Part shown: positions 8,801 through 63,349 of the stretch, one piece after another
Numbering within the stretch: the first letter of the stretch is position 1
How the letters are laid out: each line of letters opens with the position of its first letter
Source of the DNA: Malania oleifera
Taxonomy: Eukaryota > Streptophyta > Magnoliopsida > Santalales > Ximeniaceae
Direction: 5' to 3'
NCBI RefSeq assembly: GCF_029873635.1
Contig: NC_080423.1
Location: 95,141,191-95,205,190, forward strand
Length of the DNA: 64,000 nucleotides
Translations under genes and position numbers: made by a program
Notes under the pieces: generated by a model
Seen by the model: only the letters and a program-made list of their open reading frames with translations
Database searches by the model: none
Told to the model about the DNA's origin: nothing

Positions 8801-11800
8801 CTCTATCATTAGCTTTCTCAACATCTACTTTGAAAACAAGCCCCCTCTTCTTATTTCTACAAATGTCCTCTGCCACCTCATTTACCACCATAATAGCATC
8901 TACTATTTGTCTCCCCCTCACTTATTACTAATGTCCAGAGGAATAAATGAAGTGAAAAGAGCCATCCCCAATATCACAAAGAATAAGTGAACAGAAAAGA
9001 ACAGAACTTTGGAGATGAGCTTCTATAGACTAGCATGTGTACAATAGATGGCTTCTCTGACATCCCACACACTGCCTAGCCCATGCTTAACCTTGTGCCA
9101 AATAGATGTGAGAATGGAGGGAGGGTGCTTTACTCAAATTGGAATTTGAAAAAGCTTATGATATGGTGAGTTGAGGTTTTCTCGACCAAGTGATGGCTAA
9201 GGAGGAGTTCGAAAGGGTTTGGAGAAGTTAGATTAAAGGGTGCTTATCCACCATGTTTGTCATAGTGATCGGTTATCCGAGGGAGTTGAGGGTTAAAATA
9301 AAGGGAACCTCTCTCCCAATTTTTTTTTTTTACTTTCACAGTTGATGTGTTGAGCAAAATGCTTAGCCATGCTCAAGACCTTGATGTGATTCGCACTCTT
9401 AAGGTTGGCTAACAGATGGTTGTAGTATCCCATCTTTAGTTTGATGATAATAGCCTTCTTTTTCTCGAGGATAGTATTGATAAATTTCAAAAGGTTTTAA
9501 CCTTAAAATTTTCAAAAAAATTTCAAGATTGAAGATCAACATGTCTAAAAGTGGTGTCCCAAGCATTAACATGAGAAGGGGTGAGTAATGGGTTTTGCTC
9601 CCTTAGCTGATTGTACTATTTTACACTAGCCTTTTTTGCGTGTATGTGTGGACAATGCGAGTAGCTTTCTAATCCCATGGAATCTTCAATTCAAGAGATC
9701 TCTAAATGATAGGGAGATGGTGGAGTTGTCTTCCTTGTTGTCCGTATTGAACAATTGCAACTTATCTTTGGGAAGGGATGTTCATTCTTGGTATCCGGAT
9801 TATTCAAGGGTGTTTTCTTGTAAATCATTCTTTGGATCTTGGACCTATTAAAAAAATCTCCCTTTTCTCTTTATCTTGTTATTTGGAAGGTTAAAGTTCC
9901 CCAAAAATAAAGATGTTTGTTGTGCTTAACAAAATTAATCCTGATAACTTGCTGCAGATTAGGAGACCTTTGAAGGCTCTCGCTCCAGTCTCCAGATGTT
10001 TCCCTGCTCTGTTATAGGAATTCTGAAACAGCCTCCCATCTCTTTTTGCATTATGAATTTGCATGGAGGATTTGGAATAAATTATTTGGTATTATGGAAG
10101 AGAGTTGGGTTTCCCACTAACAGTGGAAGAGTTGTTAGTCATCTCTTTTGTTGGCTCTGGAAGAAAGAAGGATAGGGCAGTCCTGTGGAAGTGTAGCAAG
10201 TATGCAGTTTTATGGGGTTTATGGTTGCATTGTAACATGCAGATTTTTTCTTCGAAGAAGTTGAATTCGTTTTGGTGTCAGTCTTTGACTTCTTTATGGT
10301 GTATTGTGTTTGGAGTTTTTAGGGATGCTAGTTTTTCATGATTTAAATAGGGATTCGAGGAACTGGTTGGCTTGATTTTTATTGTTTTAGTTTTTTCCTG
10401 GTTTGAACCAGATTTTTTTGGGAGATGTCTTATTTTCGCTAGTAAATTCATTCCCTTTTAGTGAAATTTCTTTTGCTATACATAAAAAAATTCCTATGGC
10501 CAGTAGTGCCAGCATCCCTTAGCGTTGATCCAGCAGCAGCTTTGCTTAACATACAAAACCAGTAGCTGGCCATTGATCTTGCAGATCCACCTGCATTAGT
10601 GGCAGAGGAAGAAGTTTTAAGGATTAAAAAAAGGGATATAGATTACTAAGTTACAGTGTTCACTCTGGATAACCACCAGATAAGGTGGCAAATAAAGTTG
10701 ATCCACCTGAAGCACAGGCAGGGGCGCTACCAGTAGCGTACCTTCCATATTGAAATTGTGAACCAGATCCATATACGAGGCTATAAGCACCAATAACAGT
10801 TGATTGGGAAGTATATCCAGTAGATCTGGATGGATCTTCTGTTAGGTTCTTATTAGTAGGTGTTTCAAATTACTATTCTCATCTCCAAAATGATTAGTTT
10901 TTGGTTGATATTATAGTATTGGTTAGATACTTTCATTGAATAATTTTGACCCGCCGCTTGGAATCAGATTCAAGGATAGAAGAATTTGGGATTCTGTAAT
11001 AGAGAATTTTCCTAGTAACATATTCGATCGATGGAAAGGTCATTTGCTTCCAAAAGGCAGACTTATTAAAAGTAACTTACCAATATACTTCACTTTGATC
11101 TTTCCTATGCCTAATTATGCGGCTGGAAGGTTTGCTAGATTTCAGAGGAGCCCTGTGGGTCAGTGTGGAGGAGAATTTCAAGTACCATTTGGTTAGGTGG
11201 ACTGTTGTTTCCTTTCCTTATTGAAAGGGTGGGCTGGGAGTATTACATATATAATTGATGATCAAGGCTGTCCTTAAAAATGGCATTGGAGGTCACTAGG
11301 ATCAGCTGGTGAGAATGGTTATTTGCTGGCAGTAGGGAGAACTTTTTTGCTGGTGAGAATTGATGAGTGGCAGTAGGGAGAAGGACCCTCGTGGGGTGAG
11401 ATGTTGGAAGCATATTATCAAATGCGGGAGAACTTTTTTGCTGGCATTTCTTTTGAAATCGTAGATGGTCTGCTTATGTTTTTTGGCATTATGTTTGACA
11501 TGACCAACTCCTCTAAAAAGGTAATCACAAAGAGTTTTTAGGATTGAATGAAACAAGAATGCATCTGTTGGCTGTTGTTTCATGTAGGAGAGGGACTTGG
11601 TAAGGTCATGTTTAAATATGTGGAATGCTTTTTATGGGGCAGAGTGAAAGGGACAGGAGAGGATGAATAATTCAGTTTTACTTCAAGAATGGACTCTTCA
11701 TGGTGGAAGCTACCATTCTTGGATAGAAGAAGGGGAGTAGGGTCAAGATCTTACATTTCAATTTCGATTCAAATTTTGTAACTCCAAAAGTACGGAAATT

Positions 11801-14800
11801 TCGACAAAAATTTCGATTTTGATATCAATTTCAATTTGAAAAAATGACGGAAATTAGTAGTGAAGCATGAAATTCTTTGTGAAACTTTAGAAATGGTTAA
11901 CAAACATAATAATATAAGTTTTAGGACTAATATATTACAAATTAAATACATCTATGTTTTGTATGAGGTGGAAAAGTTGTAAAATAGTATGTGTATCAAA
12001 CATATTTGTAAGATAATGTACATTAAACATATTCAGCTAATACAAATGAAATTCATAAATCATTTAAATATTATTTATTATACAAATAATGATAATTTAG
12101 ACATGAATGATTAAATAAAATGTTACTGTAAGTTTATTTTTTCAAATAATTTCAAAAGCACTTGTAATAATCTTTTGTTTTGATAGAATAAATAAAATAA
12201 ATCAAAAGAGAAATTTCACTTCACTCCTAAATCTCTCATTTGAATTCCGATGAAATTTCATTGTATAGTTAAAATTTCGACAAGTTTCGCTAAAATTTCG
12301 AGATTACGATAAATTTCGGATGATTCGTTGAGATTTTGACAGAAATTATGCAAGACAAAAATCAACTGCCATTTCGATTTCGAGGGTGACGGAAATTGGA
12401 AATTTCGACAATTTTGTGGAAATTTAAGACCATGAGTAGGGTTACCAACTTTTCGTGGAGAGCTTTTGGAAAACTAAGATACCACTTGGTAGCCCTTTCT
12501 TGGGCTGCTACTTGGGTAAGGATCCTAACCTTAGATAACCGGATGAAAAGAGGCGTCTACAGCTAATAGGTGATGTTCTTTAAGGAACAAGGCGAAAATG
12601 TAAATAATCTGTTGATGTCCTATAAATGGCTAAGGTGCTGGTGGTTTTAGTTTAAGCCAATATTTCTAAGAGGTGAAGGCATAATGTGAGGCATGTTAAC
12701 CGTAATGAGGCAAGGCATCAGCGTTAGGTGTTAAGGTCTAAGCTGTTTATAAATATATACATATATTTTATATCTAAAAGTATATAAGCAAAATAACTTG
12801 CATGTTCAAAAGGAAAAAGGAAAAAATTGGGAAAAATTACAAATAAAATTTGAAAAAAGTTAAAAGTATGATTTGTGGACTTACTTGATGATCATTCTAA
12901 GCATACAAACTTAAATTCATTCAAGTAAACCTTGCTAAGATAATCATAACATTACAAATTCAAATTGTGTCCATGTTTTAGTATACAATTCTCAATTGTT
13001 TTGGAAAGGTTTAGGTTCATAAATCTAGAGGGAGAGCCTCTGAAGGAGTGGAAAGTTCTCTGGAAAACCTTGGAGGGAAGTGGCTTTCTGCTCTGTTTTT
13101 CTTGTCTAACAGTTTCATCTGTATTCAGCAACAGTCCTGCTTCTGTTCTTTTCTTCTGTGGATACTTCCTGTACTTGAGTGACTCCCCCTCACAGCCCTA
13201 TAAATTATAATATACCTTTTTCTTATTTATCCAAAAAAAATCTTTTTCAGTGAACACATTAAGGTGGGGCTTTTCTTTCTACATCTTTCTCTTGGCTTTT
13301 AAAAATTTCTTGTCTTTAGACTATTAATTTCTTCATTTTCCTATGAATGGAGGTTATATCTCATGGTATTTCCATTTTATTAAGAAGCTTAGTGAGACTG
13401 AAACAAGGGAACTTATTCGTTTAGTAGTTCTTGAATCTTTTCCTCTTCATGTGATATTAGAATTTGGGCTGGGTATAGTTTGTGGGGCTTTTCTTGTAAA
13501 GCTTTTATTTCATCTGTCGATTTTTTTTTTTTTTTTTAAATGTTTTTATTTTATCCTTTGGACAAAGGTGTTTTATAGGTAAAATTTCCTTCTAATGTTA
13601 TGCATTTTTTGTGGTTCTTAACTAAATTAATAATAGTAACTTGTTGAAGGGAAGGGGCCTCGCAAGGCACTTGGCCCAGATGTATTTGTGATCCATATTT
13701 TGCCCTGTCATGAATGGACATCCATCTTCTTCAACTGTTAGATATAGGCAAAAATGCAATACCTAGTGCACAAGGCTCCCAAGCTGTATTGAGGACTAGG
13801 GCCTGGGGAGGGCCTGATCTATGCAACCTTACCTCCAAATTCGGAGAAGCTGTTTCCCTGACCTGAATTTGTGCCTTTCAAGTTTATATTTAACACACGC
13901 CTAGTGCACAAGGCTCCCAAGCTGTATTGAGGCCTAGGGCCTGGAGAGGGCCTGATCTATGCAACCTTACCTCCAAATTCGGAGAAGCTGTTTCCCTGAC
14001 CTGAATTTGTGCCTTTCAAGTTTATATTTAACACATTTCTTACTGGGCGAAGGCTCGCAATCTTGTTAGATAGCAAGGCGTATTTGGAATAGATTTGTTT
14101 CCCATTTTTGGGTGAGATTTCGGTTTGTCTAGCTGCTTTTGGGGATTTATTATGACGAGTTTTCAGGTTGTGGTAAGGATATGCAGGGGAAGATATTTTT
14201 GCAATGTGCTTGGTTTCTATTCTTTGGGTGACGTGGAAGGAAATTAATGAGGGTTTTTAATCATTATTTCATGCCAGTGCATCTAATATTTATAGGATTG
14301 TTTTCCTTGCCCCTTTTGCTTTAGCTGAAGGTGTTCTTGGGGACATCTCTTTGAATAATGTGCGAAGAGATTGAAGGGCCATTTTCACATTTTTTTTTCC
14401 CTTCTCTCTCTTCGTAAAGAAAGAGTCCATTTTCTCTTTTGTTTCTTTGTCTTATCTAAAAGAAATATTGAGAGTGATAGTGACATAACTTTTAAAAAAA
14501 AAAAAAAGCATGTGAAAAATGTGCAATATTTAGGTTGCAAAAATATCTTGGATGATGTTAGTTTAACTTATGTTATTGTTGAAATAACATTATTTTAACA
14601 TAAACTAAGTCCATTAATTTTGTTTGTAGTTTTTTATTTATTTATTTTTTGGGTTAAAAAACTTGTTTCAACTGAACTATTTGATGGAAAAGTTAAGCTT
14701 TATCCTCTTTCTCTAGATATGTTTCAGTCAGTATGAAAACAAAAATACGCTTTGGATGGTTCGACAGGAACTTTTGGGAAATTTAAACAATACTCATAAT

Positions 14801-17800
14801 CCCTGTTTGAGTAAATGATTGGCTTGCAGTTTTGTTTCCTTCTATTTATTTTAAAGTTCTAGATATGGATGATGATTGTTGATTTTCTGATTTCTGATAT
14901 CTTTAAATTATGATTTCTTAGGTTTTATTAACGGTGGAATCAATAAACTCATATATTGCTTGGGATTTCTCCGTGACACAAGGCAAAATGAACATGGTAT
15001 TTTTTTGAAACCTTTATTGAGGCGTTTATTGATTTATATATCTTTTTCTAAAGTGTCATGGGCTATTTAAAAATTTACAAATATTTCCTATTGAAACACT
15101 TCTTTATTGGTTGTAAATATTAAGTTTCCTAGCTAATATCTTAATTTTTCCTATTATTTCCTGATTACTGGTGGTCATTACCGGAAAAAGATTTGGCTCA
15201 TACATGCCATTGGATGTTGGTCCCAAAATTTGATGGTACGAGTCTGGTGCACTTGGTGCTTTTGGTGCAGTGCATCTTGAGGTACACCAAGCAAGGTGAA
15301 GAGTTATAGACCGGCAATGCTGTAAACATATTTTTTCCATTTAGCAACATGCCATATCTTTTGAGGGCAAAGGGTATTTATGCCCTTCTCAATAAGATGT
15401 AGTATGCTTTCTCAAAGTTATTTTTGTTGTTCAATTTCTTATGATAGAATTTAAGGCCGTCTTAGTCTACCCTAGTTGAAAAATCAAGGGCTCTCACATG
15501 AGATGAGCATTTTCAAAGTGCCTTGAGGAGCTTCTTGTCCAAACAATCAAAGGCGAAGTCTCCCTTCACTTGAACATTTGTATGTTCCTACTTATAGTTT
15601 GTCTATGGCGTCAACATTTCAAGAATCTTAGGTTGAAAGGGAATAATCTTCAATATTAAATTTAATCACGCATCTAGAAAAGAATATATGGTGATAGGAA
15701 GTCTATTAAGATGAAGGGAAATGTCCTTTAATTTGTGAACTTTTGACATTTCAAAATTAGTACTGATGAGGATCATCCACTTCAAAATTTGGCTAATCTC
15801 ACACTAATTCTCACTAATGAACCCATATTTATAGACAAGGTAAAAAATATAACTGTTTGGGACCTATTGGGTATTATTAGAAAAGTTCAAAAATGCTTAA
15901 GCACATTTAACTCAAATTAACTCAATTTTACCGTAGTTAAATAATTTTTAACCTGCCGAGGTTCAGGTAGCTGAACCGTGGTTCGGTTGCCTGAATAGAC
16001 ACAGGAATAAAAGGTTTTAAAATAAGTTCGGTTGCCCGTGTTGAAGTTCGGTGGCCCGAATCAAAGTCAGTAGCATTTGTTCGTAACTTTGGGTGCTCGG
16101 TCATAGGTTCGGTCGCCCGAACTCGTGTGTTCGGTCGCCCGGGGCTCAATTTGAACTAAATAGTTTGGTCGCCTGAGTTGGTGGAATGTCCCTTTCAAAG
16201 GGTTCGGACGCCCGTGGACAGTACTTGTGCGGTTCGGTCGCTCGAGAGCCCAAATCAATTGTTGACTTTTCAACAGTTCGGACGCCCGAGGAGTTTTGAA
16301 TTCCAAGGGTTCGGTCACCCGAGCTCTCTCAATTTACTTAATAATGTTCAATTTTAGCACAGATTTAACACTCCTATATATTATATGATATGTGTGAATG
16401 TTGGGACCTAAAGTCATACTATGGTCTTACTGAGGTCGTTTTGAGATATTCCATCTGGCGTCAGTCGACCGTGCCCTAAGGTCATTGAATCCCTATGGTC
16501 ATTCTACGGTCATTTTGAGCTTACAAATCCTACATGCATGACATGCAGAGATTATTACAGACCATATCTCTAGTTACTATTACAGACCCTAAAAAATGAA
16601 ATTATTACAGACCCAAAATATATCATGAATTACAATATAAAATAAATCTTCTGGGTCTTCAGTTTTCAAGTTTTCACGTGCCATCAAATGATCAAAGCTA
16701 ACATGAACCTGCATACACACTTGATAGACATTAAATACCGGAGTATTTGTCATAATCAAAACAGGGTATGACCCATAAGGTCAACATTTGTTGATAACTA
16801 CTCTAAGATGACTTGGTTAAATTTAATGAAAGATCATTTTGAGTTTTTTAATATCTTTTGTGCCTTTTGTTCTCAAATAAAGACTCAATTTGATATGCCA
16901 GTTAGGATACTTCGTAATGGCAATGTTAAGGAGTATTTCAGTATCCAATTCACTACCTATATGACTAATTTTGGTATGGTCCATCAGTTCTCTTGTGCTC
17001 ACCCTCCACAACAAAACCGGCTGCAGGGTGGAAAAATAGAATATTCTTGAAGTCACTCGTTTGCTATTATATCAAATAAATGTTCCCAAAGTTTTTCTTT
17101 GAGTGATGTTTTGCTCATAGCTTGCTCCCTCATCAATAAAATGTCATCTTCTATCCTTGGTGTTAAAACCCCATTTTAGTTATCTTTCGTAAGGCTCCTT
17201 TGGTCTCCCTTCCTCCTTGTATATTCGGTTGTGTGTCCTTTGTCCATCAGTTAACTCCAGGAACAGATAAGTTGGATCCTTGTGCTATCAAATGGATTTT
17301 TCTGGGCTATTCCTATACTTAAAAGGGATGTCGATGTTATAGTCCTACTCTACATTGATTCTTTGCCTTTGCTGATGTCGCTTTTTTGAATTTACACTGT
17401 ACTACTTTGATTCCTTGAGTTCTTATGACCTTGATGAGTCCCTTCCTATGCCTTGTCTCTAGATCTCAACCTATTATATGTGCCCAATGCTCCTACATCT
17501 TCATCCAATTTGAGTCCTACTTGTCGCTTGGATCATCCCGATTTAGATGTATATGCATGGCGACTCAAGGGAGGAGAGCCTTCTCTAGCTTCTACTATGG
17601 CGCCTCTAGTTCCCTCGTTAGATGATCTTATTTCCCATGAGTTGGTTGGAAAGGTAGATTCATTTGTACCCAGCATCTTATCTTTCATTTTGTTTGTTAT
17701 GATTTCTTGTCACCCTCATATTACTATTTCGTTAGTACTTTGTTTTCTATTGCTCTTCCAAAATCTATTTCTAAAGCCCTATCCCATTTTGGGTGGAGGG

Positions 17801-20800
17801 CTACAATGGTTGAAGAGATGTGTGTGCTACATGATAATGATACTTGGGATTTGGTATCTCTTCTTCCTGATAAGTTTGTGGTTGTTTGTCATTGGGTTTA
17901 AAATGTGAAAGTTAATCCTAGTGGTTTTGTAGATCATTTGAAGGCCCGCCTTGTTGCTAAGGGATATACTCGGGTGCATGGTCTTAAATTTCCACGAAAT
18001 TGTCGAAATTTTTGGTTTTTGTCATCCTCGAAATCAAAATGGCAATCGATTTCCATCTTGCATAATTTCCATATCGAAATCTCAACGAATCATCTGAAAT
18101 TTATTGAAATCTAGAAGTTTTAGCGAAACTTATCGAAATATTAACTATGCAATCAAATTTCCTCGAAATTCATATGAGAGATTTAGGAGTGAAGTGAAAT
18201 TCGTCTTAATTTATTTTATTTATTTTTTTCGAATCAAAAGATTATTACAAGTGCTTTTGGAATTATATGAAAAGATAAACTTATAACAACATTTTATTTA
18301 AACATTCATGTCTATATTATCGTTATTTGTATTATAAATAATATTTAAATGATTTAGGAATTTCAGTTGTATTAACTAAATATGTTGAGGGCACATTATC
18401 TTATAAATACTTTTGATATACATACAGTATTACAACCTTTCCACCTTATACACAACGTAGATGTATTCAACTTGTAATATAATAGTCCTAAAACTTACAT
18501 TATTATGTCTTTGAACCATTTCTAAAGTTTTGCAAAGAATTCCATGCTTTATTACTGATTTCAATTATTTTTTCAAATTGAAATTGAAATTGACATTGAA
18601 ATCGAAATTTTCGTCAAAATTTCCGTACTTTTGGAGTTTCGAAATTTGAGTCAAAATCAAAATTTATGACCTTGCTTAGGTGCATAGTTTGGTTCAAACA
18701 CATTCTCTCCGGTCGCTAAACTTGCCTCAATATGTTTGTTCATATCTTTAGCCACTACTTGTTATTTGCCTCTAAATCAGTTAGAAGTGAAGAATGTTGT
18801 CCTACATGGTGATCTTCATGAGGAGGTATATATGGAGCAACCACCTGGGTTTGTTGCTCAGGGAGAGTCAGACTCAATGTCTCGGCTTAAGAAATCATTA
18901 TATGGATTAAAACAATCTCCTAGACCATGGTTTGGCCGGTTTAGTGTTGTAGTACTTGAGTCTAGCCTCCAATGGTGTGCAATAGATCACTATATAGTTT
19001 ATCATCATACTCCATCTGGAAGGATTTTTCTTATTGTGTATGTGGATGACATTGTGGGCATTGGTGATGATGGAGGCATCCAGGACCTAAAGGTTTTCCT
19101 ACAGAGTAAGTTTCAGACCAAGGACTTGGGACCATTGAAGTATTTCTTGGGCATAGAAGTATTGAGATCTCGTATGGGAATTGTTTTGTCATAGAGGAAG
19201 TATGTTCTTGATCTTTTAGATGAGATGGGACTATTGGGATCCAAACATGTTGATACAACCATGGATCCCAATAGTAAGTTAGTGTTAGATATGGGTGATT
19301 TGTTGCCTAACCCAAGACTGTGCCTTGAGAATTGTTGAAAAGTTGAATTATCTGACTGTCAGTTGACTAGATATATCCTTCACAACAAGTGTTGTGAGTT
19401 AGTTTCTCGATTCCTTGAGAGCAGGTCACTGAGATGCAATAATTTGCATTTTGAGATATCTTAAAGGTGCACTAGGGAGAGGTCTCTAATATCAGGATGG
19501 GGGTCACATTCGGGGATTATGTAGATGCAGATTGGGCTGGGTCACCCCTCCGACTGAATACCCACAACCAGATACTATATCTTTGTTGGTGGTAATTTGG
19601 TGTCTTGGAAAAGTAAGAAACAAATTGTGGTTGGTCTCTTTTATTAGGATGGGGGTCACATTCGAGGATTATGTAGATGCAGATTGGGCTGGGTCACCCT
19701 ACAACCGAAGACCCAAAACCAGTTACTATATCTTTGTTGGTGGTAATTTGGTGTCTTGGAAAAGTAAGAAACAAATTGTGGTGGCTAGGTCAAGGTCAAG
19801 TTTTGAGTCAGAGTATAGGGCTATGACACACATTACTTGTGAACTTATTTGGTTGAACAAAATGTTGAAAGAACTAGGATTTCCACATTCTCAGCCTATG
19901 GAGTTGATGTGTGATAATCAAGTTGCTATTCATATTGCCTCTAGCCTAGTCTTCTATGAATGGACAAAGCATATTGAAGTTGATTGCCATTTTATTTGGG
20001 AGAAATCTGTATAGAAGCTCATTACAACCGCTCATGTGAAGTCTAAGTTAAGCTTGCTGATTTGTTCACTAGCCTTAGGAGGTGCTTGTGTGAAATTCAT
20101 TTGTAATAAGCTAGGAGCATATGATATATATACTCCAGCTTGAGGGAGAGTGTTAATGGTTATTTAGTCATTTAGCAATATTATTATGTGTTAGAGTTAT
20201 GTTAGTAAGTGTGAGTTAGTAAGGGTATTATGGTCATTGATATTGTACTTGACATATATAGTAAATAGAGGGAGAGACCTATAATTGAGGTTAGCTCTAC
20301 CATTTTACCCAATTATTCAACACTTCCTTTTTGCCTTTGGTGTCTTTTTTTTTTTTAATAAAAAAGAAAACTCTTGTGCCTTCTTTTCCTTGGATTTTGT
20401 CAGTCGGATGCCTCTGCTTTTGTCACATTTCGTTACAAACTATTAATGTGGGACGCACCTGAATATCAAATGGGAACATATTTTTAGTTCTTTGGTTCAT
20501 ATTATGAGTATTTAATAAATTATTTTCTAATAAAAGGGCAAAACAAAGAGATCATCTTCTTTTATCTCTGAATTAATACATTGTTGCTAAACAGGATATT
20601 GGATTTAGCGTGGAGCATGCAAATCCTTCAGGTGAAAAAACAGTAAGTTGCATCACGATTTTATTTTTAATGTTTTTGAGGTAATGCTCTTATGTTGCAG
20701 TCCTTTTACACTTACATTCCAGCTATATCTCTGAATTTTTTTGATTGTTTGCTTCCACCCCACCCCCCTCACCCCCCCAAAAAAAATTTTTTTTTTCCTT

Positions 20801-23604: not shown

Positions 23605-25168
23605 CACTGAAGTAGGGTTGTTCAACAACACGCCTAACTAGATAAACTCAAATTGAACCTACCCATAAGTAAGATTATCACAATGATATGCCCCGGTCTC
23701 AACTTACGGCCCAGGTGTTACTGTAGTGACGTCTGTGTACCTGATATACTTCTCAACATATATATACGCAGCGGAAAACATAAACATCCACTAGAGTTTT
23801 AACTGCCTAATGGATACATACAATTATTACATTCATATACAATATTGTATGATACTCTACGCATTCTCGAGACTTACAACATTTTACAAGTTCTGTAAAC
23901 CTATAACATAACCTACAAAATCGAGCTCGTGGAGACACTCAAAAATAGATCACTACCCTGCCTTAGTCCTTGCTAATCTCAACCTCAATAAGGACCTAAA
24001 AAGATAGTTTGTATGATAAGGTGAGACACCTTTTAGTAAGGGACGATTAAGCTAATAATAGTGTGTGGTAAACATGCTTAGTGTTTAACAAAAACATAGA
24101 CATATATAATCATCTTTTTCGTAATTATAAAATACGCAGCCCATTTTCATCATATGAACAGTCTCATAGTATATAACAATGATTACATAAATGTACAGAT
24201 ATATAGGATATGACACGCCCTCAAACTCTATATCATGTATGAATCCCCACAACCACCCCTACTGTCTCAATACAGTTTGGGTACACGATCAAGAGGCAAA
24301 CTCACACTAAGACCGCCCCTACTGTCTCAATACTGCTTGGGTTAGTATAGATCAAAAGTATGGTACCCTCATTGGCAATGGATCCATGCCTACACTATCA
24401 GTCTCCAGGATTCTTAAAGCATATCGTGCAATTTAAGCAATTTAAACACTCTTTTGAAATCATTTCACAAAACACATCATTACGTGAAATCCAGCCCGTA
24501 GCCGTCAAATAAATTTTTTGCATTTTCACAACAATTCCAGTATTTCACGACATCAATACCTACCACACAGTTTTCCACATTCGAAAACAACCCGAAAGTA
24601 AATATAAACAATTAATATCATAGTTGGGTTTAAAATAACAAAAATTGCATTTCCAATCGGTGAAAAGGTCCATAGTGACAAGTATAATATTCTAAAAATA
24701 TAACATTTGAATTTGACCGGTTGGTTTTGAAAATAAAGCTGGTTTACCAAATCAAGGCTTGGAAACCCTAAAACCGTCGTAATTCGATATTTAAAAGTTA
24801 TTTCAAAATTCAATCAATTCATATTGTATAAATCACTGTTTTAACATAACCCCTTTACTTGCGTGTGAATCGGAGTCTGAAACGACTCGGAACTCAAGCC
24901 CTAACTTTCCGAATTCCGAACCTAAACGGCTTAAAACAATAACACGAAAACCCTGAAACCTAATACTCGAAGAACAACACTTAAGTATAATTTCATATAC
25001 TACAGATCTACTAGACCAAAAGCAAAAATTGACCCTTACCTCGATTTTCTAGAAAAACTCGAAAATCTCCAAAATGAAATTCTGATCCGTAGAACCTGTA
25101 GAGATTCCTTCCTGACCCACGTAGCGACGTCGGATCGTCGATTTTGGCAACACACGACCTGAAAATCT

Positions 25169-25169
<1 letters not shown>

Positions 25170-25230
<61 letters not shown>
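25170..25230. repeat. (GA)n microsatellite in the left LTR of the Tekay-like element
   Basis: About 30 GA units. On the element's own strand it is a (TC)n tract lying downstream of a TATA-like 'atttatacataaatatc', so it sits near the expected transcript start. The partner LTR has the same tract at 30690-30758. Confidence 0.9.
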
Positions 25231-25234
<4 letters not shown>

Positions 25235-28200
25235 TAAGAAAAACCTAACTTAGCATTTAAGTAATCAAAATAAATATCTCCTCCAAGATATTTATGTATA
25301 AATATCTCAAAACATCTTTTCTAAAATATCTCCTCCAAAATATCTCTTTATTTATTTATTTATTATTTATTTATTTGATCGGGTTACTACAATCTCTCCT
25401 TTTTATAAACTTTCGTCCTCCAAATTTGCTAACTATTCCTATCACATCGTCTGAACTCTAACTGCTCTGTCTCTAGGAAGAGCTGACAGCCAACCACATA
25501 ACAGCCTCGTCTTAAATTTATTACCTACTCTCATTTATAGCGGAGGAATATCGTGGTTACATACAATAGTCTTGGAAGCTCACATTACATATACAAACTC
25601 TCCCAGAGACAATCCACATACCCTTACCATAAGCAAAAAGGAATACACTTACATATCTACATTACTTGTCTAACTTTGAACATCTCTAAATAGTTGAGGA
25701 TACTTCTGACGTATCCCGGCCTCTAATTCCCAAGAAGTCTCCTCAACCACGTGGTTACGCCATAGCACCTTTACCAATGGTATCTCCTTGGTACGCAGCC
25801 TCCGTACCTTCTGATCCAAAATCTGAACTAGTACCTCACCATAAGCTAGTGCTTCACTGATCTCTAAGGACTCATAACTGATCACGTGCAATGGATCTGG
25901 CACGTACTTCCTCAGCACCGACACGTGAAACACATCATGCACCCTAGATAAGGTCGGGGGTATGGCTACCCGATAAGAAAATGGACCTATCCTCTCTAAG
26001 ATCTCGAACGGCCCAGTGTACCCAGGACTCAACTTGCCATTCCTCCCGAACCTCGTCACTCCTTTCATAGGAGCAACCCTAAAAAATACCATATCTCTGA
26101 TATCAAATTTTAGTTCCTGTCGGCGAGTATCGGCATAACTCTTCTACTGACTCTCAGCTGATCTAATCCTTTCTCTGATACGCTTGACCTTCGCAGAGCT
26201 CTGCTGAACCAACACCGGTCCCAAAATCTGCTGCTTACCTACCTCACCCTAGTACAATGGAGATCGGCACTGACGACCATACAAGGCCTCATATGGTGCC
26301 ATCTCAATACTAGCCTAGTAGCTGTTGTTATAAGCAAATTCTATGAGCAGTAGATACCGAATCCAACTGTTACCGAAATCCAACACGCATGCTCGCAGCA
26401 TATCCTCCAAAATCTGAATCGTCCTTTCTAACTGTCCATCCTTCTGCGGGTGAAATGTCGTGCTGAACGTGAGCTGTGACCCCAAGGCATCCTGTAACCC
26501 CTTCTAGAACCGAGATGTGAAATGTGGGTCTCGATTTGAAACGATAGACACCGGGACGCCATGGAGTCGTACTACCTCCTGTATGTACAACTCTACTAGC
26601 ATATTCATAGAATAGCTGACTCTGATTGGAATGAAGTGTGTCGTCTTAGTTAGCCGATCCACCACCACCCAAATAGCATTTTGTTCGTGCACCGCTGAAG
26701 TTAACCTCGTAATAAAATCTATCGAGATGTGTTCCCACTTCCACTTGGGAATGTCAAACGGCTGTAGTGGTCCTGCTGGTCTTTGATGCTCAGCCTTCAC
26801 CTGCTGACATGTCCGACATTGCCCAACAAACTCGGCCACTTCCCTCTTCATATTACTCCACCAGAACGATTCTCGCAGATCTCCATACATTTTCGTGCTT
26901 CCTAGATGAACAATATAGAGAGAACGATGAGCCTCCTTCAGAATCATCCTCTTTATCTTTGTGTCTTCTGGTACACACAGTTTGGTGTGGAATCTGAGAA
27001 CTCCATCCGTAGAGACAGTAAAGTCTGAATGTGGTTCACTCTGTAGTTTCTCCACAATCTTTACAAACTCCACGTCGTTCAACTGAGCAACTTTGATTCA
27101 TTCTCGTAAGGTCGGCTGAGCCACCAACTCAGCAATGAGGGCCTAGGGATCCTCATCCACTAGCTCTACCCTCAATCTCTCTAGATCCATCCTGATCTGA
27201 TGTTACCCCATAACTGTTGAAACCGACGCCTCCACTGACTTTCGACTCAGCGCATCAGCTACCACATTAGTTTTTCTAGGGTGATAGCTAATGGTACAGT
27301 CGTAGTCTTTGATCAATTCGAGCCACTTGCGCTACCTCATATTCAACTCCTTTTGGGTGAGGAAGTATTTAAGACTCTTATGATCAGTAAAAATCTCGCA
27401 TTTCTCACTATACAGATAGTGCTACTAGATCTTTAGAGCAAACACAACTGCTGCCAACTCCAAATCATGCGTAGGGTAATTCTTCTCGTACTCCTTGAGC
27501 TGACGAGAAGCGTAGGCAACCACTTTACCCTGTTGCATCAAAACACAACCTAGTCCCTTCAAGGATGCGTCACTGTAGATCACGAAGCCACCATCTCCTG
27601 ATAGAATAGTCAACATTGGAGCCGTGGCCAAGCGCCTCTTCAACTCTTGGAACTCTGCTCGCAGTCTCTAGTCCACGCAAACCTGCTACCTTTCCTAGTA
27701 AGCTGCGTCAAAGGGCCCGACAGCTTAGAAAAGCCCTCGACGAACCAACGATAATACTCAGCCAGACCCAAGAAACTACAAACCTCTTGCGCATTCCTTG
27801 GTCTCACCCAGTCAACTACCTCCTCAACTTTACCTAGGTCAACTGAAATCCCCTCCTTGGACACCACGTGCCCTAGAAATGCAACCTGCTCAAGCTAGAA
27901 TTCGCATTTCTTGAATTTAGCGAATAGTTCCTTCTCTCTAAGTTCCTGAATGACTACTCTAAGATAAGCATCATGCTTTGTTGGACTCTTCGAATACACC
28001 AAGATGTCGTCGATGAACAGCACCACGAATTTATCCATGCACTCGTGGAACACCCTGTTTATCAAGTCCATGAATGCTGCAGGTGCATTCGTCAAACCAA
28101 TCGGCATAACCAAAAACTCGTAATTGCCATACTGGGTTCGGAAAGCAGTCTTCAATACATCCTCTGCTTCACCTTCAGCCAGTGATACCCGGACTACAGA

Positions 28201-30684
28201 TCGATATTCGAAAAGACCTGAGTGCCCTGCAACTGGTCAAACAAGTCGTCAATCCGAGGCAACAGATATCTGTTCTTCACTGTCACCTTATTGATCTCTT
28301 GATAATCGATGCACATCCTCATCGACCCGTCCTTCTTTTTCACAAACAACACGGGCGCACCCCAGGGTGACACGCTCAACCTGATGAACCCCTTGTCCAA
28401 AAGTTCTTGCAACTGCTCCTTTACCTCTTTCAACTCAGCTGGAGCCATCTTGTAAGGCGCCTTGGAGATTGGTGCCGTCCTCGGTGCTAACTCAATACAA
28501 ACTGCACTTCCCTGTCTGGAGGCAATCTTGGCAAGTCTTCAGGAAAGACATCGGAGAACTCCTTTATCACTGGGATATCCTCCAACTTCAATCCCTCCTT
28601 AGGTGACTCTTTCACACTCGCCAAGTATCCTTGACAACCCTCTAGAAGCAGCTGTCTCGCCTGCATCGCCGAGAGGATCCGTGGTGTAGAACGCACACAC
28701 GACCCAACAAATAGAAATTCTTGCTCCCTGGAACCCCTCTTGGATTCCTTCCTGGCCTGCCTCGCTATATCGCATAGGAACACACGAGCCTCAGTCTCAT
28801 CCTCACTAGAGGCATCCAGGTGATTATTGCCTCCTGCCATAATCCCCTTCCCTCTGGGTTCCATCCTGTACATAGGTAAAAGCCAACTTAATCATTCCAC
28901 ATTTAACATAATAAATGCAAATATGGAATAAAAAGATTAAACATGTATTCGAGACACCGACAACCCATACACACTAGACTGTCTAACCTCTCATCTCGAC
29001 ATCCGAGTCAAGTCTCTCAACCTAGAAACAAAACCATCGATGGATTTACCATGGTTTTCCAGATATCGTCATTCTTAGAAAAGCACAGAAGATCGTCAAA
29101 GGAAATCTCGCCTCCGAGCCTCCAGACTAAAACCCGACTAACTCTCTAACTCTATCTCATTATAGCCAATACTCTGGTAATTTACTCACTGACCATCAAA
29201 GTCTATAAAACCTAGCAAACCTAGGGCCTGATACCACCTGTAACGCCTCGGTCCCAACTTACGGCCCAGGTGTTACTGTAGTGACGTCTGTGTACCTGAT
29301 ATATTTCTCAACAGATATATACGCAGCGGAAAACATAAACATCCATCAAACTATTACCATAGTTCTAACTACCTGATAGATACATACAACTATTCCAACA
29401 TCCATATACAATACTGTATGATACTCGACGCATCCTCGAGTCTTACAACATTTTATAAGTTCTAAAAGCCTATAACATAACCTACAAAATCGAGCTCGTG
29501 GAGACGCTCACTCAAAAACAGATCGCTACCCTGCCCCAGTCCTTGCTAATCTCAACCTCGATAAGGACCTGAAAAGACAGTTTGTATGATAGGGTGAGAC
29601 ACCTCTTAGTAAGGGATGATTAAGCTAATAACAGTGTGTGACCAGCATGCTTTAAGTGTTTAACAAAAACATAAATGTATATAATCATCGTTTCCGTGGT
29701 AAAATACGTAACCCATATTCATTATATGAATAGCCCCATACTATATAACAACAATTACATAAATGTACAGATATGCAGGATAGGACACGACCTCAAACTC
29801 TATACCATATATAAATCCTCATAATCGGGGTTGACCGCCCTTACTGTCTCAATACAGTTTGGGTTCATATAGATCAAAAGTATGGTGCCCTCACTAGAAA
29901 CAAATCCATTCCTACACTATCAGTCCCCAGGGTTCCTAAAACATATCGTGCAATTTAAGTAATTTAAATACTCTTTTGAAAACATTTCATAAAACACATC
30001 TTTACGTGAAATCCGGCCCGTAGCCATCAAATAAACTTCCTGCATTTTCACAACAGTTCCAGTATTTCACAACATCAATACCTTTCACATAGTTTTCCAC
30101 ATTCAAAAACAACCCGAAAGTAAATATAAACAATCACAGTACGGATTTTAAACAACAAAAACAACATTTCCAACAGGTGAAAAGGTCCAGAATGACAAAT
30201 ACAATATTCTAAAAATATAACATTTGAATTTGATCGGTTGGTTTTGAAAATAAAGCCGGTTTACCAAACCGAAGCCTGGAAACCCTAAAACCGTCGTAAT
30301 TCGATATCTAAAAGTTATTTCAACATTTCAATCGATTCATATTGTATAAATCACTGAATTAACACAACCCCCTTACTTGCGTGTGAATCGAAGTCCGAAA
30401 CAACCAGAAACTCAAGCCCTAGTTTTTCGAACCCCAAACCTAAACAGTTCAAAACAACAGCACGAAAACCCCGAAACTTAATACTCGAAGAACAACACTT
30501 CAGTATAATCTCGTATACTACAGACCTACCGGACCAAAAGCAAAAACGGACCCTTACCTCAATTTTCGAGAAAAACTCAGAAATCTCCGAAATGAAATTC
30601 TAATTCGTAAAACCTGTAGAGATTCCTTCCTTAATCCACGTAGCGACGTTGGATTGTCGATTCCAGAAACACACGGCCCGGAAA

Positions 30685-30689
<5 letters not shown>

Positions 30690-30758
<69 letters not shown>
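30690..30758. repeat. (GA)n microsatellite in the right LTR of the Tekay-like element
   Basis: About 34 GA units at the position matching 25170-25230 in the other LTR, slightly longer. The tract was therefore part of the LTR before insertion and has since drifted in length. Confidence 0.9.
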
Positions 30759-30761
<3 letters not shown>

Positions 30762-31151
30762 TTATAAAGAAAAACCTAACTTAGCCTTTAAGGAATCAAA
30801 GTAAATATTTCCTTCAAGATATTTATATATAAATATCTCAAAATATCTCCTCCAAAATATCTCGTTATTTATTTATTTTATTTTTTATTTTTATTTTTAT
30901 TTATTTATTGATTGGGTTACTACATCAGGTTCCTGAAATTCTTGAAATCTCAAGGAAGGTATTTGAAAATTTTAAAACCTCCGTGGAGGTTATTATCTTT
31001 TTGCTAGATATTCAAGTTGACTCGAATCGAATCAATTGCATTCGCAATGATTTGATTCAGAATTGAATTTTTACCAAGCCAATTAGATCTGATCAGTTGA
31101 AATTATAAGTCTATTCACCAAACCCAACCAATGAACACCCCTACGTTGAAG

Positions 31152-32098: not shown

Positions 32099-32867
32099 CA
32101 TAATGTTGTTGACTCAAAATCAAACGACCTTCACGAATCGTTCCTTGATCACGACCACTGGAAAAGAAACATATAAGAAAGGCTTGAAGGACCCTAGGGT
32201 TATACCTTGGGGGATCACTCTGATGCCTAAGTTAGGAATTGTGGGAGACTCTAGGTTACAACAGTAGAAAGAGTGAGTATGAGTTAGATGTCTTATCTCC
32301 TCCCCAAGTCCCTTTTTATAGCGGCGAAGGTTGACCCTTCATTGATCCAGTTATTAATGAGTGTGCCATTATGCTTAGGGGGTTATTGGTAACTTAAGGG
32401 AGGTTATGGCAGACATCAATAGTAGCTATCTTGTAATCGTACCATTAAAGCTTAGGAAGGTTATAGGTAACTTAAGGGAGGTTATGCAAGAAATCAATAG
32501 TAGCTCTCTTGTAATTGTACCATTAAGCTTAGGGGGGTTATAGGTAACTTAAGGGCGGTTACGTGAGACATCAAATGTTGGCTTTATAACTATCCAACCC
32601 TATGAGAACTATCAATTTTGGGTGTGTTAGTTGCCCCACCAACACTCTCGAATATTTGAAATAAATTTCTTTTATTTGAGAGTTATAATTTGAATCGGAC
32701 CTCGAGTGATTTAGCTCAACTAACTTGATCCGAGTCAATGCGCTTACTTTCGGGCTCACTTCAAGTCGACTTCTACATTACCCGACTCAATCCAAGCCGG
32801 AAAGTATGCTCTTAAAAGCGTTTTATGACCAGTCTAGTCTTATTCAAGCGGCGCTCATTAGATAGGG

Positions 32868-33386: not shown

Positions 33387-34206
33387 TCCTTTTCAAGTCG
33401 GTTCAGCTCCTTCTTGTGTTCATCACCTTTTCTAGGTTGATGTATTTCTGCACACGTGCCATCAACTCTCCCATATTGACTAGGGGCTTCTTTCCTAGTG
33501 AATTAAGAAATCCCCTGGCTAGAGAGCCATTGTTAGGGCTGCTACTGTCACTCCGTGATCTAAGATTCAAATCTTCAAGGTTGCGTTGACGAAACGATGC
33601 ATGAATTTTTTTAACATTTCCCTTTCTCTTTGAACAAGGCTCATCTGATGAGCTGAAGTTTTTTCTATCTTCCTATTGCTGATGAAGTGTCTAGCGAACT
33701 GCTACTCCATTTCAGAAAAAGATTCAATGGAACCAGGCTTCTAGGTTTGACCTTGACATTCTCTGTTGACTCTATGAGTCCAATCCTATTTTGATAATGA
33801 CAAATCACTTGGTATTTGATCTATGCATTGAGTTTGTGAACAGGACCTATATTAAGCATGCACGGAAAGATAACGAGTCATGGAAGCCATAAAGTAAATC
33901 TGACACATTTTGGCAAGCTCCATGAAAATAAAAGAGTATAAGAATCAAGATGCAAGCGGTAAAGTTCAAGAACATCTTGGGAATGGGTATTTAGAACTCA
34001 TGTACTTACATTTTTATATGATTTAATTTGAGGCTCAACATAACTTAGAATGACTTTAGGATTCATGCATTTCATGTATATCATTAGGGGACTTTCATGG
34101 ACTTAGAAATACTTTTAAAATCATGAAAAATTTGTTTTATAAAAAACCCAAGAAAGAGAGCAAAGCAAAATTTTAAATTAGAGAAGAAAAATTGAGAAAA
34201 AGGGCA

Positions 34207-34373
34207 CTTCGGTAGCCTAAACTCAACTTCAGTTGCCTAAAGAATTTTTTCGGTAGCCTGAAAAATTAATGGGAAAAACAGAATCTGGCCGAGGTACTTT
34301 AGTTGCCTGAACTGGAACTTCAGTCGCCTGAAGTCACTTTAGGAGCCTGGACTTCAACTTTGGTACCCTGAAG
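34207..34373. repeat. Array of about 7 dyad motifs in the U3 of LTR B
   Basis: Motifs of the form TTCRGT.GCCTGAA recur every 15-45 bp. The best is ACTTCAG-TCGC-CTGAAGT (34317-34334), with 7-bp arms and a 4-bp spacer. Others occur at about 34208, 34231, 34248, 34298 and 34359 with partly matched arms. The array ends about 94 bp before the TATA-like box. Confidence 0.85.
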
Positions 34374-35531
34374 TCGCAGGAAAGTTTAAAAATCAGATTT
34401 TTATTAGTAGAACTCGCGAGCTTTTTCTTTGATCCAACGATTGAGATCAATCCTAAGGGTAAGACACTATAAATACTAAATATCTAAATCCTAGAACATA
34501 GCTAAGACACACAAGAAGAGAAGAACACATCTTATTGAAAGAATATTAAGAAACTTGCTCTTATTACTATACGATTGCCTACACTTCAACTTCTACTCAT
34601 CAAGCTTGGGCAAATCAACTCAGAATCTTGAAGGGAACTCGTTTACTCATCTTGTTTTTCATTCTAGTGTTGAGGTTTGATTATTCAAGTTATTATTTTC
34701 AAGAATTTCGCATCTCATTACTTGTTATTGAATGTCATTAGCGAAATTGATTTTGAAAGTACATATACATATAAATATTTTTTTGACAAGATCATTACTT
34801 GAGAAACTTTTTAGCTATTGATTGAATAGTGTTTTATTCAAAAGTATATCTATTTTTCAAAGAACTTCTCATTCCAAATCTATTGTTGAAATAAGCCGGG
34901 TGATTGAAAGTGAGTAGATTTTCACATAGATTATTTGGATAATCTAACTACTTGATTAAGGTTTTGTTATTGATTGAATGGTTTGATTCAAGTGTGTATT
35001 AAGTTAAAAGATTCATATTTTAGATATATTAAAACACTTGAATATATATCCTTGGTATTCATAAATATTTATTTTATTGAGGGATATTTTGTTTGAAAAA
35101 CCTTATACTCAATATTTTAATCTTTGAATTACATATCGTATATATTTGCATATTACAAAGATCGGATTGTGATTAAATATTTCACAGAAAGTTTTTTGAT
35201 ATAAATTGATAAAACATTCAAGATAAAGCTTTTAACAAGTTCACATTAGATATATTTGTGCATCTTTACAAAGTGAACTAGAACCCTAATACACTCCAAA
35301 GAATTTTAAATATTTCTTTACTTAGGAGTTTTTGATAAAAAAGGTTTTGTGTGTTGAAGCATATCATACATAAAACGATTGTATCATTTTCATACATTCT
35401 GAGCTTCAAGTTATATCATCTGTTAATGTATTAGCAATTTGATTTGTACTCACAAGTTTTTGTTAGAAGCATTTTTGAGTGTTGTTTTTCAGATTCTATT
35501 ATATCCACGGTTCGGTGTGTGAATCGAGGTT

Positions 35532-35640
35532 TGAGGAGAGAGTTGTACCCCTTGTAAGCAGCGGGTGTGAGGAGGAAGTTGTACCTCTTGTAAGCAGCGG
35601 ATTAGGAGGGAGTTGTACCTCTTGTAAGCAGCGGATTGTA
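35532..35640 (+). repeat. Tandem repeat of about 31 bp in LTR B
   Basis: Three to four units of 'gttgtacctcttgtaagcag' plus 'cgg..' follow one another, each with a 'gaggag/ggaggg' linker. They lie well downstream of the TATA-like box, in the transcribed part of the LTR. The short open frame across them is a by-product of the repeat. Confidence 0.8.
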
Positions 35641-37039
35641 ACGGAAGTTTCGTCTCAATTTAAGGAGTAGGGATTTTAGTGAAATCCTTGAATGGGTTGC
35701 TCAAGGCGAGGACGTAGGTTGGGTTGGCTGAACCTCGTAAGATCGTGGTTGCATTCTCTCTTCCCTTAACTCTTTATTTTCCGCACTACATTATATTAAT
35801 TGCATTGCATGTGAATGTTGAATTACTTTACACACAATTAATTGGGTAAACGGAACTCATTGATAAAATAACTTTAATTAAGTCATAAATCCCTACCATT
35901 GATTTGTTAAATATACAAATAGGGAGTAAGTGGTAAATAAGGTCAAAGAATTTTTAAAATACCCAATTCACTCCCCCCCCTTGGGATTACACCTAAATCA
36001 ACATTCCCTTTTAGAGAGACTGCAAATGCTCGGCACATGATTGCATCTGGTGCGCCTTACAATTGCATTAGCACTCTAAAGGTGTCCAAGTGATCAATAG
36101 GATTAGACAAGTCATTGTACCCTTCTATATTTGGCATTTTAAACTTGTTAGGTAGGGAAACATTTATTACCTCTTTAGTGAAAAGTGGATATGAGAATTT
36201 GACTGAGGACTACCCGGTGGAAGGGCTACTGCGAGCTTCTTTTATCATTTTTTTTCAACTAATCATTTTTTTTTGAATTTTTCTTCTAATTCGTGTGATC
36301 GTTGTTCATAAATGTCCACGCTATTCACATCCTCCAACTTCTTTGCTAGATCAAAAGCCATATCATTGACTCCTAGTGGAACTATAACTTTCCCATTTTA
36401 CTAGGGTTCTACTCTGTTAGGATGAGAAACAGGTTCCTTATGATCTCTTTTTTGCTGCAGGATTATAGGGAACATGTCTTCCATCCTTTTCTAAAATGCA
36501 AGGAATTCACATCTCGTCATGCTGGAATTATCACCTTGTGCAGAATGTATGGATTGGGGGTGATTAGTCACCTATTTTTGATTTTGACTTCAAATTGTGT
36601 GACGTAGTCATGATCAAGGATCGGAAAAACCTCTCAAAAGAATTCTCATAGATGGCAGCAATTGTTGTTTCCTGAAAATCGAACGACCTTCACGAATCGA
36701 TCATTGATCACGACCACTTGAAAAGAAACAAATAAGAATGACTTGGAAGACCCAAAGTATACCCTAGGTGATCACTTCGATGCCTAAGTTAGGAACTCTG
36801 AGAGGCTCTAGGTTGCAATAGTAGAAAGAGTGAATATTAGTGAGATGTCTTACTTATTCTCAAAGCCCCTTTTTATAGCGGTAGAGGTTGACCCTTCATT
36901 GATCCGGTTATTAATGAGTGTGTCATTATGCTTAAGGGGTTATAGGTAACTTAAGGGCGGTTACGTGAGACATCAAATGTTGGTCTTATAACTCTCTAAC
37001 CCTATGAGCATTCCTATCAATTTTTGGTGTATCACATAA

Positions 37040-62681: not shown

Positions 62682-63349
62682 TGTTGGCCTAATAAGGCTT
62701 ACGAATTTTATTTTGATGATAACAAATCAAGAGAATTTAACGTGTTTTGGTTAAAGTGATAACGTTTCAAAAGACAAACATTAGAGTTCAAGATCAGGAG
62801 TATTTTGATAGCTTACATTCCAAACAAGTGATCAAAAGAAAGCTCAACAGATCAAAGATTGACAAATCTTATGAAAACTTAAAGAATATTGAAGCTCAAG
62901 GTCAAGATGGATTCAACAAAGAATATACATGAAGATTTTGTGTTTAGAGAGTTTTAAATATTAAGGAAGTCTTGTGTGAGTACTTCAATTTAAAATCAAT
63001 ATGGATGCTTTAAAGATCTTTAGGAATGATTACGGACTTAGAGACCCATTTTTAAAACCTTGAGAAATATTTAAAAAAAAAAATTCAAATCAAAGATTCC
63101 AAGTTTAAAAGCCAAAAGAGTTTTCGGAAACAAAATCTTAAAAACAATGAAATTGCACTCTGAGACGACTGACTAAATTTTGTCAGGCGACTGACAATTT
63201 ATATGGTTTTTAAAAAAGGCAAATAGAACTGTGATTGGCATCTCACAAATCTTCCTTAGGCAACTGACAGTAGTCAGGCGACTGACAGAACACACTCAAG
63301 CGACTAGCAGAGCACTGACTTTTGAAATACGCTAATTTTAAAGTGACAA
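62682..63349 (+). mobile_element. SIRE-like LTR, 5' part (LTR C)
   Basis: It starts 'tgttggcctaataaggctta' followed by 'attttgatgataacaaatca', the family start seen at 33764 and (inverted) at 16786. A dyad-motif array begins 480 bp in (63162-63310). It is interrupted at about 63350 by a second LTR. Confidence 0.65.
63162..63310. repeat. Array of about 6 dyad motifs in the U3 of LTR C
   Basis: Perfect examples are TGTCAG-GCGA-CTGACA (63181-63196) and GTCAG-GCGA-CTGAC (63273-63286). Imperfect ones are at about 63164, 63257 and 63298. The position within the LTR (about 480-630 from its start) equals that of the arrays in LTR A and LTR B. Confidence 0.85.

What the first reader, a model, noticed from the sequence alone, without database searches (positions are those of the whole stretch)
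15955..16325. Covarying dyad-motif arrays at a fixed place in three SIRE-like LTRs
LTR A (15961-16323), LTR B (34207-34373) and LTR C (63162-63310) each carry an array starting about 440-480 bp from the LTR start. Where a TATA-like box can be seen (A and B), the array ends about 95-130 bp upstream of it. Units are palindromes with a 4-bp spacer. Arm sequences differ, but both arms change together: GTTCAG/CTGAAC and GTTCGG/CCGAAC within array A, ACTTCAG/CTGAAGT in B, TGTCAG/CTGACA in C. Symmetry kept while sequence changes suggests the dyad itself is used, either as a binding site for a dimeric plant factor, as a target of host silencing, or as RNA/DNA hairpins. I know of no named element that describes this. 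Covariation and position are seen; the function is inference.
Basis: partly seen in the sequence, partly recalled or inferred. Interest (0 to 1): 0.85.

Follow-up and report, generated by a model that had tools for sequence, protein, structure and literature searches.

The report
Palindromic repeat arrays in Sirevirus LTRs
Three old plant retrotransposon ends in this window each carry a cluster of short, imperfect palindromes, a feature already described for this retrotransposon group; the matched change of the two arms looks mostly like a shared motif plus ordinary CpG decay.

Summary
The arrays are real. The 12-mer TCRGTCGCCYGA (up to 1 mismatch) has 12 matches in the window, 12 of 12 inside the three arrays; 0.25 are expected by chance. 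The arrays start about 463, 443 and 480 bp inside three Sirevirus-type LTRs; A's LTR runs on the minus strand.

The covariation claim is mostly not upheld. Dealing right arms anew within arrays pairs the core as well as the real arms do (69 of 92 cells; expected 68.6; P 0.59). Pooled arm changes fall in CpG columns (34 of 92 cells against 9 of 92), 33 of the 34 being deamination-type; array A alone shows no such excess. The 'spacer' is a shared, directional TNGC (15 of 22 in the arrays, 0 of 40 elsewhere). Differences between arrays do match between arms, but there are only three arrays.

This is the Sirevirus palindromic repeated motif (RM) of Bousios et al. 2010. A fits it well; B and C are short variants with a CAG-CTG core. 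Likely role: cis-regulatory boxes upstream of the LTR promoter, later a host-silencing target. No function was tested here.

The parts
15428..16786 (-). LTR A, Sirevirus-type; start at 16786 (TGTTGACC...) firm, far end at 15428 tentative
   Evidence: Shared LTR-start arm TTTTGATNATNACAAAT at LTR position 26; flanks TTTGT/TTTGT, but TTTGTTG occurs 3 times in the 7 kb searched and no C run of 5 or more lies near this end
15961..16324 (+). Array A: 12 units (11 by arms alone), consensus GTTCGG-TCGC-CCGA on the + strand (antisense to the LTR)
   Evidence: GC 0.51 and CpG o/e 1.22 against 0.50 and 0.42 in the rest of the LTR
15825..15834 (-). Probable TATA box of LTR A (CTATAAATA), coordinates approximate
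   Evidence: LTR position 954 of 1359
33764..36003 (+). LTR B, probably a solo LTR, 2240 bp, TGTTG...CAACA, flanks TTCTC/TTCCC (4 of 5 alike)
   Evidence: start arm at position 26; C-rich signal 23 bp before the end
34206..34374 (+). Array B: 7 units, consensus ACTTCRG-TNGC-CTGAA
   Evidence: Tandem Repeats Finder units of 21 and 40 bp
34467..34475 (+). Probable TATA box of LTR B (CTATAAATA)
   Evidence: LTR position 705
35963..35986 (+). C-rich signal near the 3' end of LTR B
   Evidence: run of 8 C at 35973; place fits the Sirevirus integrase signal described in PMC2829016
62682..63345 (+). LTR C, first part only; continuation not recognised before the window ends
   Evidence: start arm at LTR position 30; the end coordinate is a judgement by eye
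63161..63310 (-). Array C: 4 units used in the counts plus one at 63161 lost to a scan margin; consensus TGTCAG-TCGC-CTGA on the - strand (antisense to the LTR)

Best explanation
The arrays are the Sirevirus LTR 'repeated motif' (RM): a short, near-palindromic box multiplied by local tandem duplication in the U3 part of the LTR, upstream of the TATA box. All three arrays descend from, or converge on, one directional sequence, YRG-TNGC-CYR (best copy TTCGG-TCGC-CCGAA). Most likely mechanism (inferred): the boxes act as clustered binding sites for a host factor that reads the sequence in double-stranded DNA and drives the LTR promoter; being CpG-rich and repeated, they become methylated and small-RNA-targeted once the element is silenced. 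Methylated CpG then decays by deamination. Because the two arms are mirror images, the same sequence context decays on both arms, CGG to CAG and CCG to CTG, which gives the look of compensating change. Shown here: the arrays, their positions, the shared core, the lack of within-array covariation, the CpG bias in B and C. Inferred: factor binding, methylation, silencing, order of events.
For: Published precedent: palindromic CGG-CCG repeats upstream of a TATA box in Sirevirus LTRs, including a Vitis RM CGGTCGACCG one base from this CGGTCGCCCG. LTR identity: shared start arm at positions 26, 26 and 30, where the paper puts the right inverted-repeat arm at 28 on average; C-rich signal near the end of B; CTATAAATA in A and B. 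Shared core: 12 of 12 matches in the arrays; TNGC or its complement in 15 of 22 units picked by arms only, 0 of 40 elsewhere. CpG decay: 34 of 92 CpG arm cells depart, 33 as C>T or G>A, against 9 of 92 non-CpG arm cells, Fisher 2e-5. Array A is a local CpG-rich island.
Against: Array A alone shows no excess of change in CpG columns (8 of 48 against 6 of 48, P 0.77). The CpG count assumes a CGG/CCG ancestor, and units of one array are not independent. Between arrays the R-Y pair and outer arms do match between arms, which selection for the dyad would also give. B and C fail two published RM traits (at least eight copies; CGG-CCG core). The array starts (443-480) lie beyond the published 200-400 bp. 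No small-RNA, methylation or binding data were available; the host genome is not held.
Confidence: 0.82

Rival explanations
1. The dyad itself is under selection: a dimeric plant factor needs two mirrored half-sites with a 4-bp gap, and each LTR family has moved to a new half-site while keeping symmetry.
For: Across arrays the outer pairs (34 of 69 against 21.55, P 0.0003) and the R-Y core pair (18 of 23 against 11.05, P 0.0031) match more than a free permutation gives. A weak within-array hint in A (core 38 of 48 against 35.41, P 0.083).
Against: Only three arrays; within arrays 69 of 92 against 68.61, P 0.594, and B is below expectation (19 of 28 against 20.72). The left half is the better conserved in A, and the gap is itself conserved and directional, as for one asymmetric site.
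Confidence: 0.2
2. The arrays act as single-stranded hairpins (RNA from the 3' LTR, or DNA), feeding small-RNA production and silencing.
For: Maize Sirevirus palindrome regions are small-RNA hotspots with predicted structure (passages in PMC5311732 and PMC10760457). RNA folds are somewhat stronger than shuffles: z -1.85, -1.47, -1.53.
Against: 5 of 100, 16 of 200 and 15 of 200 shuffles fold as well; of 150-bp windows the lowest z is -1.91, in array C, while array windows with z near zero or above also occur. Arms mismatch often: 23 of 92 core cells.
Confidence: 0.25
3. The arrays are neutral minisatellite-like duplications with no function; the symmetry is that of one founding unit.
For: Tandem periods of 20-22 and 40 bp in parts of the arrays; within-array pairing equals permutation.
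Against: The same core recurs in three LTRs whose sequence otherwise aligns at or near shuffle level, at nearly the same place, and in published Sireviruses of distant plants.
Confidence: 0.15

Closest known systems
Sirevirus LTR repeated motif (RM), Bousios et al. 2010, PMC2829016 (abstract, passages, sections 7, 8, 9, 13, 19 seen; figures not held)
   Same: Many short dyad-symmetric boxes clustered in the first half of the LTR, upstream of a TATA box, forming a CpG-rich patch (A); the Vitis RM CGGTCGACCG differs from A's CGGTCGCCCG at one base.
   Different: B and C have CAG-CTG in place of CGG-CCG, fewer than eight copies, and no CpG-rich patch; the centre here is TNGC (directional), not in the paper's Table 3; arrays start at 443-480 bp rather than 200-400 bp.
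Palindrome-rich cis-region of maize Ji, Opie and Giepum LTRs (Bousios et al. 2016, Genome Research; not held; known here from passages in PMC5311732 and PMC10760457)
   Same: Palindromes in the regulatory part of Sirevirus LTRs; variable sequence.
   Different: Maize consensus CACCGGACNNNGTCCGGTG; small-RNA data exist there, none here.
Tnd-1 RM (ACAATCGATTGT), tobacco, in Table 3 of PMC2829016
   Same: A Sirevirus RM without CGG-CCG, as in B and C.
   Different: Perfect palindrome of unrelated sequence, 8 identical copies.

Membership tests
Sirevirus LTR | Conserved inverted-repeat arm starting about 28 bp inside the LTR | tested here: met
   Shared TTTTGATNATNACAAAT at positions 26 (A), 26 (B), 30 (C); the place fits the paper, but the paper's own arm letters are in a figure not held, so sequence identity was not compared
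Sirevirus LTR | C-rich integrase signal about 21 bp from the LTR end | tested here: inconclusive
   B: met, run of 8 C ending 23 bp before 36003. A: no C run of 5 or more found near its end. C: LTR end not seen
Sirevirus LTR | TATA box cTATAA/TAT/AAg near mid-LTR | tested here: met
   CTATAAATA in A (954 of 1359) and B (705 of 2240); not in C, whose LTR is incomplete
Sirevirus LTR | Multiple polypurine tracts and AT/TG attachment site next to the 3' LTR; primer-binding site after the 5' LTR | not testable with these tools
   No internal domain recognised beside these LTRs: no second copy in the window by self-comparison and no TGGTATCAGAGC-like site (up to 2 mismatches) at their 3' ends
Sirevirus RM | Dyad-symmetric repeated box in the LTR, upstream of TATA | tested here: met
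   symmetry imperfect: 69 of 92 core cells paired
Sirevirus RM | CGG-CCG core | tested here: not met
   A: 7 of 12 units, met as consensus. B: 0 of 7. C: 0 of 4. The paper itself admits one exception, Tnd-1
Sirevirus RM | At least eight copies per element | tested here: not met
   A 12, met; B 7; C 4 counted plus one dropped at a scan margin. Only LTR copies can be seen here
Sirevirus RM | Cluster forms a CpG-rich island | tested here: not met
   A: GC 0.51, CpG o/e 1.22, met. B: 0.45, 0.54; C: 0.43, 0.53, not met
Sirevirus RM | Cluster starts 200-400 bp inside the LTR and runs 300-500 bp | tested here: not met
   Starts at about 463, 443, 480; lengths about 364, 169, 150. Near, but outside, the stated range; A's length fits
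Maize-type small-RNA hotspot | Excess of small RNAs over the palindromes | not testable with these tools
   No small-RNA data; host genome not held

The most novel reading that the evidence does not exclude
A host factor of this plant lineage recognises a directional core YRG-TNGC-CYR, and separate Sirevirus families have kept arrays of it at a fixed place while the CpG-containing version (A) shifted to a CAG-CTG version (B, C) that escapes CG methylation yet stays a CHG site, with matched change on both arms. That would be a visible record of a retrotransposon promoter adapting its regulatory box to host DNA methylation.
Probability: 0.12. Interest if true: 0.65.

Novelty: new variant of a known kind. 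Interest (0 to 1): 0.27.

Why it matters
It adds one RM sequence, with a directional centre and a CAG-CTG form, to a known but functionally untested promoter feature of a major plant retrotransposon group. It also gives a caution: in methylated mirror-image repeats, CpG decay can look like compensating change, so covariation tests on such palindromes must allow for CpG context and for relatedness of units.

Tried and rejected
Host-genome collection of the LTR family: not possible, no genome held. Viral collection: two LTR-start patterns gave 0; two palindrome patterns gave 38 and 67 single matches. In those 105 loci (938,465 bases) no locus has more than 2 core matches within 400 bp, so none is a comparable array and none was used as a relative.

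LTR B end: I first took a CATTCTC at 35752 as the end and used 1990 bp. A C-rich signal further on puts the end at 36003; the first end is dropped. The folding and composition figures for B outside the array used the short version.

Helical phasing of units: five periods in three arrays, no correction. A peaks at 10.5 (p 0.002), B at 10.0 (p 0.002), C at 10.5 (p 0.075); the periods disagree and tandem duplication confounds them. Not claimed.

Dyad density as proof: B is not above shuffles at the 6-bp setting and the window maximum is not above shuffled windows.

Papers: TCGGTCGCCCGA, 0 papers. Four related strings: 65 papers hold one or more, 20 listed, whose titles are on other subjects; 45 not seen, among them probably PMC2829016, whose Table 3 holds CGGTCGACCG. 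Sirevirus+palindrom+LTR: 13 papers. Palindrome plus CpG deamination in LTRs: 23 papers, 12 listed, by title and abstract start none on plants' Sireviruses. A five-term search gave 0. One more listing, added nothing that I used.

Full report
What is there. Array A (15961-16324), array B (about 34206-34374) and array C (about 63161-63307) are clusters of a short repeated box. The pattern TCRGTCGCCYGA with up to one mismatch has 12 matches in 64 kb, 8 in A, 2 in B, 2 in C and none elsewhere, against a shuffled mean of 0.25, largest 3 in 100. With up to two mismatches, 4 of 28 rows (3 places) lie outside the arrays.

Which LTRs. B starts at 33764 (+), C at 62682 (+), and A at 16786 on the minus strand. 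All three share TTTTGATNATNACAAAT at LTR position 26, 26 and 30, where Bousios et al. 2010 place the right arm of the Sirevirus inverted repeat (28 bp on average). Elsewhere the LTRs align only at or near shuffle level; the best stretches are collinear (A minus with B plus at LTR positions of about 258-301 and 263-302, score 35 against a shuffle maximum of 31; B with C, score 34 against 35). B ends at 36003 in CAACA with flanks TTCTC and TTCCC (4 of 5 alike) after a C-rich signal, so it is probably a solo LTR of 2240 bp. A's far end at 15428 rests on flanks TTTGT/TTTGT, but TTTGTTG occurs 3 times in the 7 kb searched and no C run was found, so that end is tentative. No second copy of these LTRs lies in the window by self-comparison.

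Place. Measured from the LTR start the arrays begin at about 463 (A), 443 (B) and 480 (C).

Symmetry. Of the 23 units counted (12 A, 7 B, 4 C; one C unit at 63161 was lost to a scan margin), 69 of 92 core cells pair and 8 units have all four core pairs; all six pairs form in 4 of 23. Dyads alone exceed local shuffles in A and C but not clearly in B, and the window-wide dyad density is not unusual.

Covariation. Dealing right arms among units of the same array gives a mean of 68.61 core pairs against 69 observed (P 0.594); outer pairs 29.48 against 34 (P 0.054). A alone has a weak hint (38 of 48 against 35.41, P 0.083), B is below expectation (19 of 28 against 20.72), C level (12 of 16 against 12.53). 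Dealing among all 23 units leaves a signal in the outer pairs (34 of 69 against 21.55, P 0.0003) and in the R-Y core pair (18 of 23 against 11.05, P 0.0031). That is a difference among three arrays whose units are copies of each other, so it is at most three observations; outer pairs form mainly in B (17 of 21).

CpG decay. Taking TCGGTCGCCCGA as the starting form, the four arm columns that lie in CpG depart in 34 of 92 cells, 33 of them C>T or G>A; the four other arm columns depart in 9 of 92 (Fisher 2e-5). By array: A 8 of 48 against 6 of 48 (P 0.77), B 16 of 28 against 1 of 28, C 10 of 16 against 2 of 16. So the effect is carried by B and C and assumes that their ancestor had CGG-CCG. Mirror-image arms give the same context on both sides, so context-dependent decay alone can turn CGG/CCG into CAG/CTG.

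A shared, directional centre. Picking units by their arms only, 15 of 22 in the arrays have TNGC (or its complement) as the four middle bases, against 0 of 40 such sites elsewhere in the window. Units run one way within an array; relative to the LTR they point backward in A and C and forward in B. So the three arrays are forms of one sequence.

Structure. RNA folds of the arrays score z -1.85, -1.47 and -1.53, with 5 of 100, 16 of 200 and 15 of 200 shuffles at least as stable. Windows along the LTRs do not single out the arrays strongly. Hairpins are not excluded, not shown.

What is known. PMC2829016 reports that Sirevirus LTRs hold a palindromic repeated motif with a CGG-CCG core, many copies, CpG islands and a following TATA box, absent from other copia elements, and lists 13 consensus sequences, one of them (Vitis, CGGTCGACCG) one base from array A's centre. 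It leaves function open. Passages in PMC5311732 and PMC10760457 report the maize palindrome regions as small-RNA hotspots with predicted secondary structure. The 2016 paper itself was not held.

Verdict. Array A is a Sirevirus RM by nearly every trait that could be tested. B and C work in the same place and share the core, but fail the CGG-CCG, copy-number and CpG-island traits; they are best called variants or decayed forms. The most likely job is promoter regulation by a sequence-reading host factor, with silencing as a later consequence; this step is inferred.

Noticed in passing
window 23690-25391 and 29245-30924: Direct repeat of about 1.7 kb, 83% alike, with an integrase zinc-binding fragment between them on the minus strand (26507-27097): looks like an LTR pair.
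   Followed up: partly
window 47440-48052 and 50476-51085: Direct repeat of 613 bp, 88.7% alike, flanking copia-type fragments on the minus strand (48479-50352): looks like an LTR pair.
   Followed up: partly
window 56449-56868 and 59203-59629: Direct repeat of 428 bp, 87.6% alike, with a primer-binding-site-like TGGTATTAGAGC at 56884: looks like an LTR pair whose ends hold internal 90-bp repeats.
   Followed up: no
window 16787-20014: Fragments of a copia element on the + strand beside LTR A (weak integrase match, E 0.0094, below the curated cut-off; reverse transcriptase 18688-19191, E 1.6e-37): LTR A may have inserted into it.
   Followed up: partly
window 35531-35638: A 34-bp unit repeated 3.1 times (88% matches) in the downstream half of LTR B.
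   Followed up: no
window 11744-12434 and 17977-18674: Inverted repeat of about 700 bp, 85% alike.
   Followed up: no
window 13762-14035 and 19481-19782: Two recent-looking tandem duplications: 138 bp (98% matches) and 151 bp (92%).
   Followed up: no
window 32362-33379: Several tandem arrays (periods 78, 100, 34, 40 and 80 bp) just upstream of LTR B.
   Followed up: no
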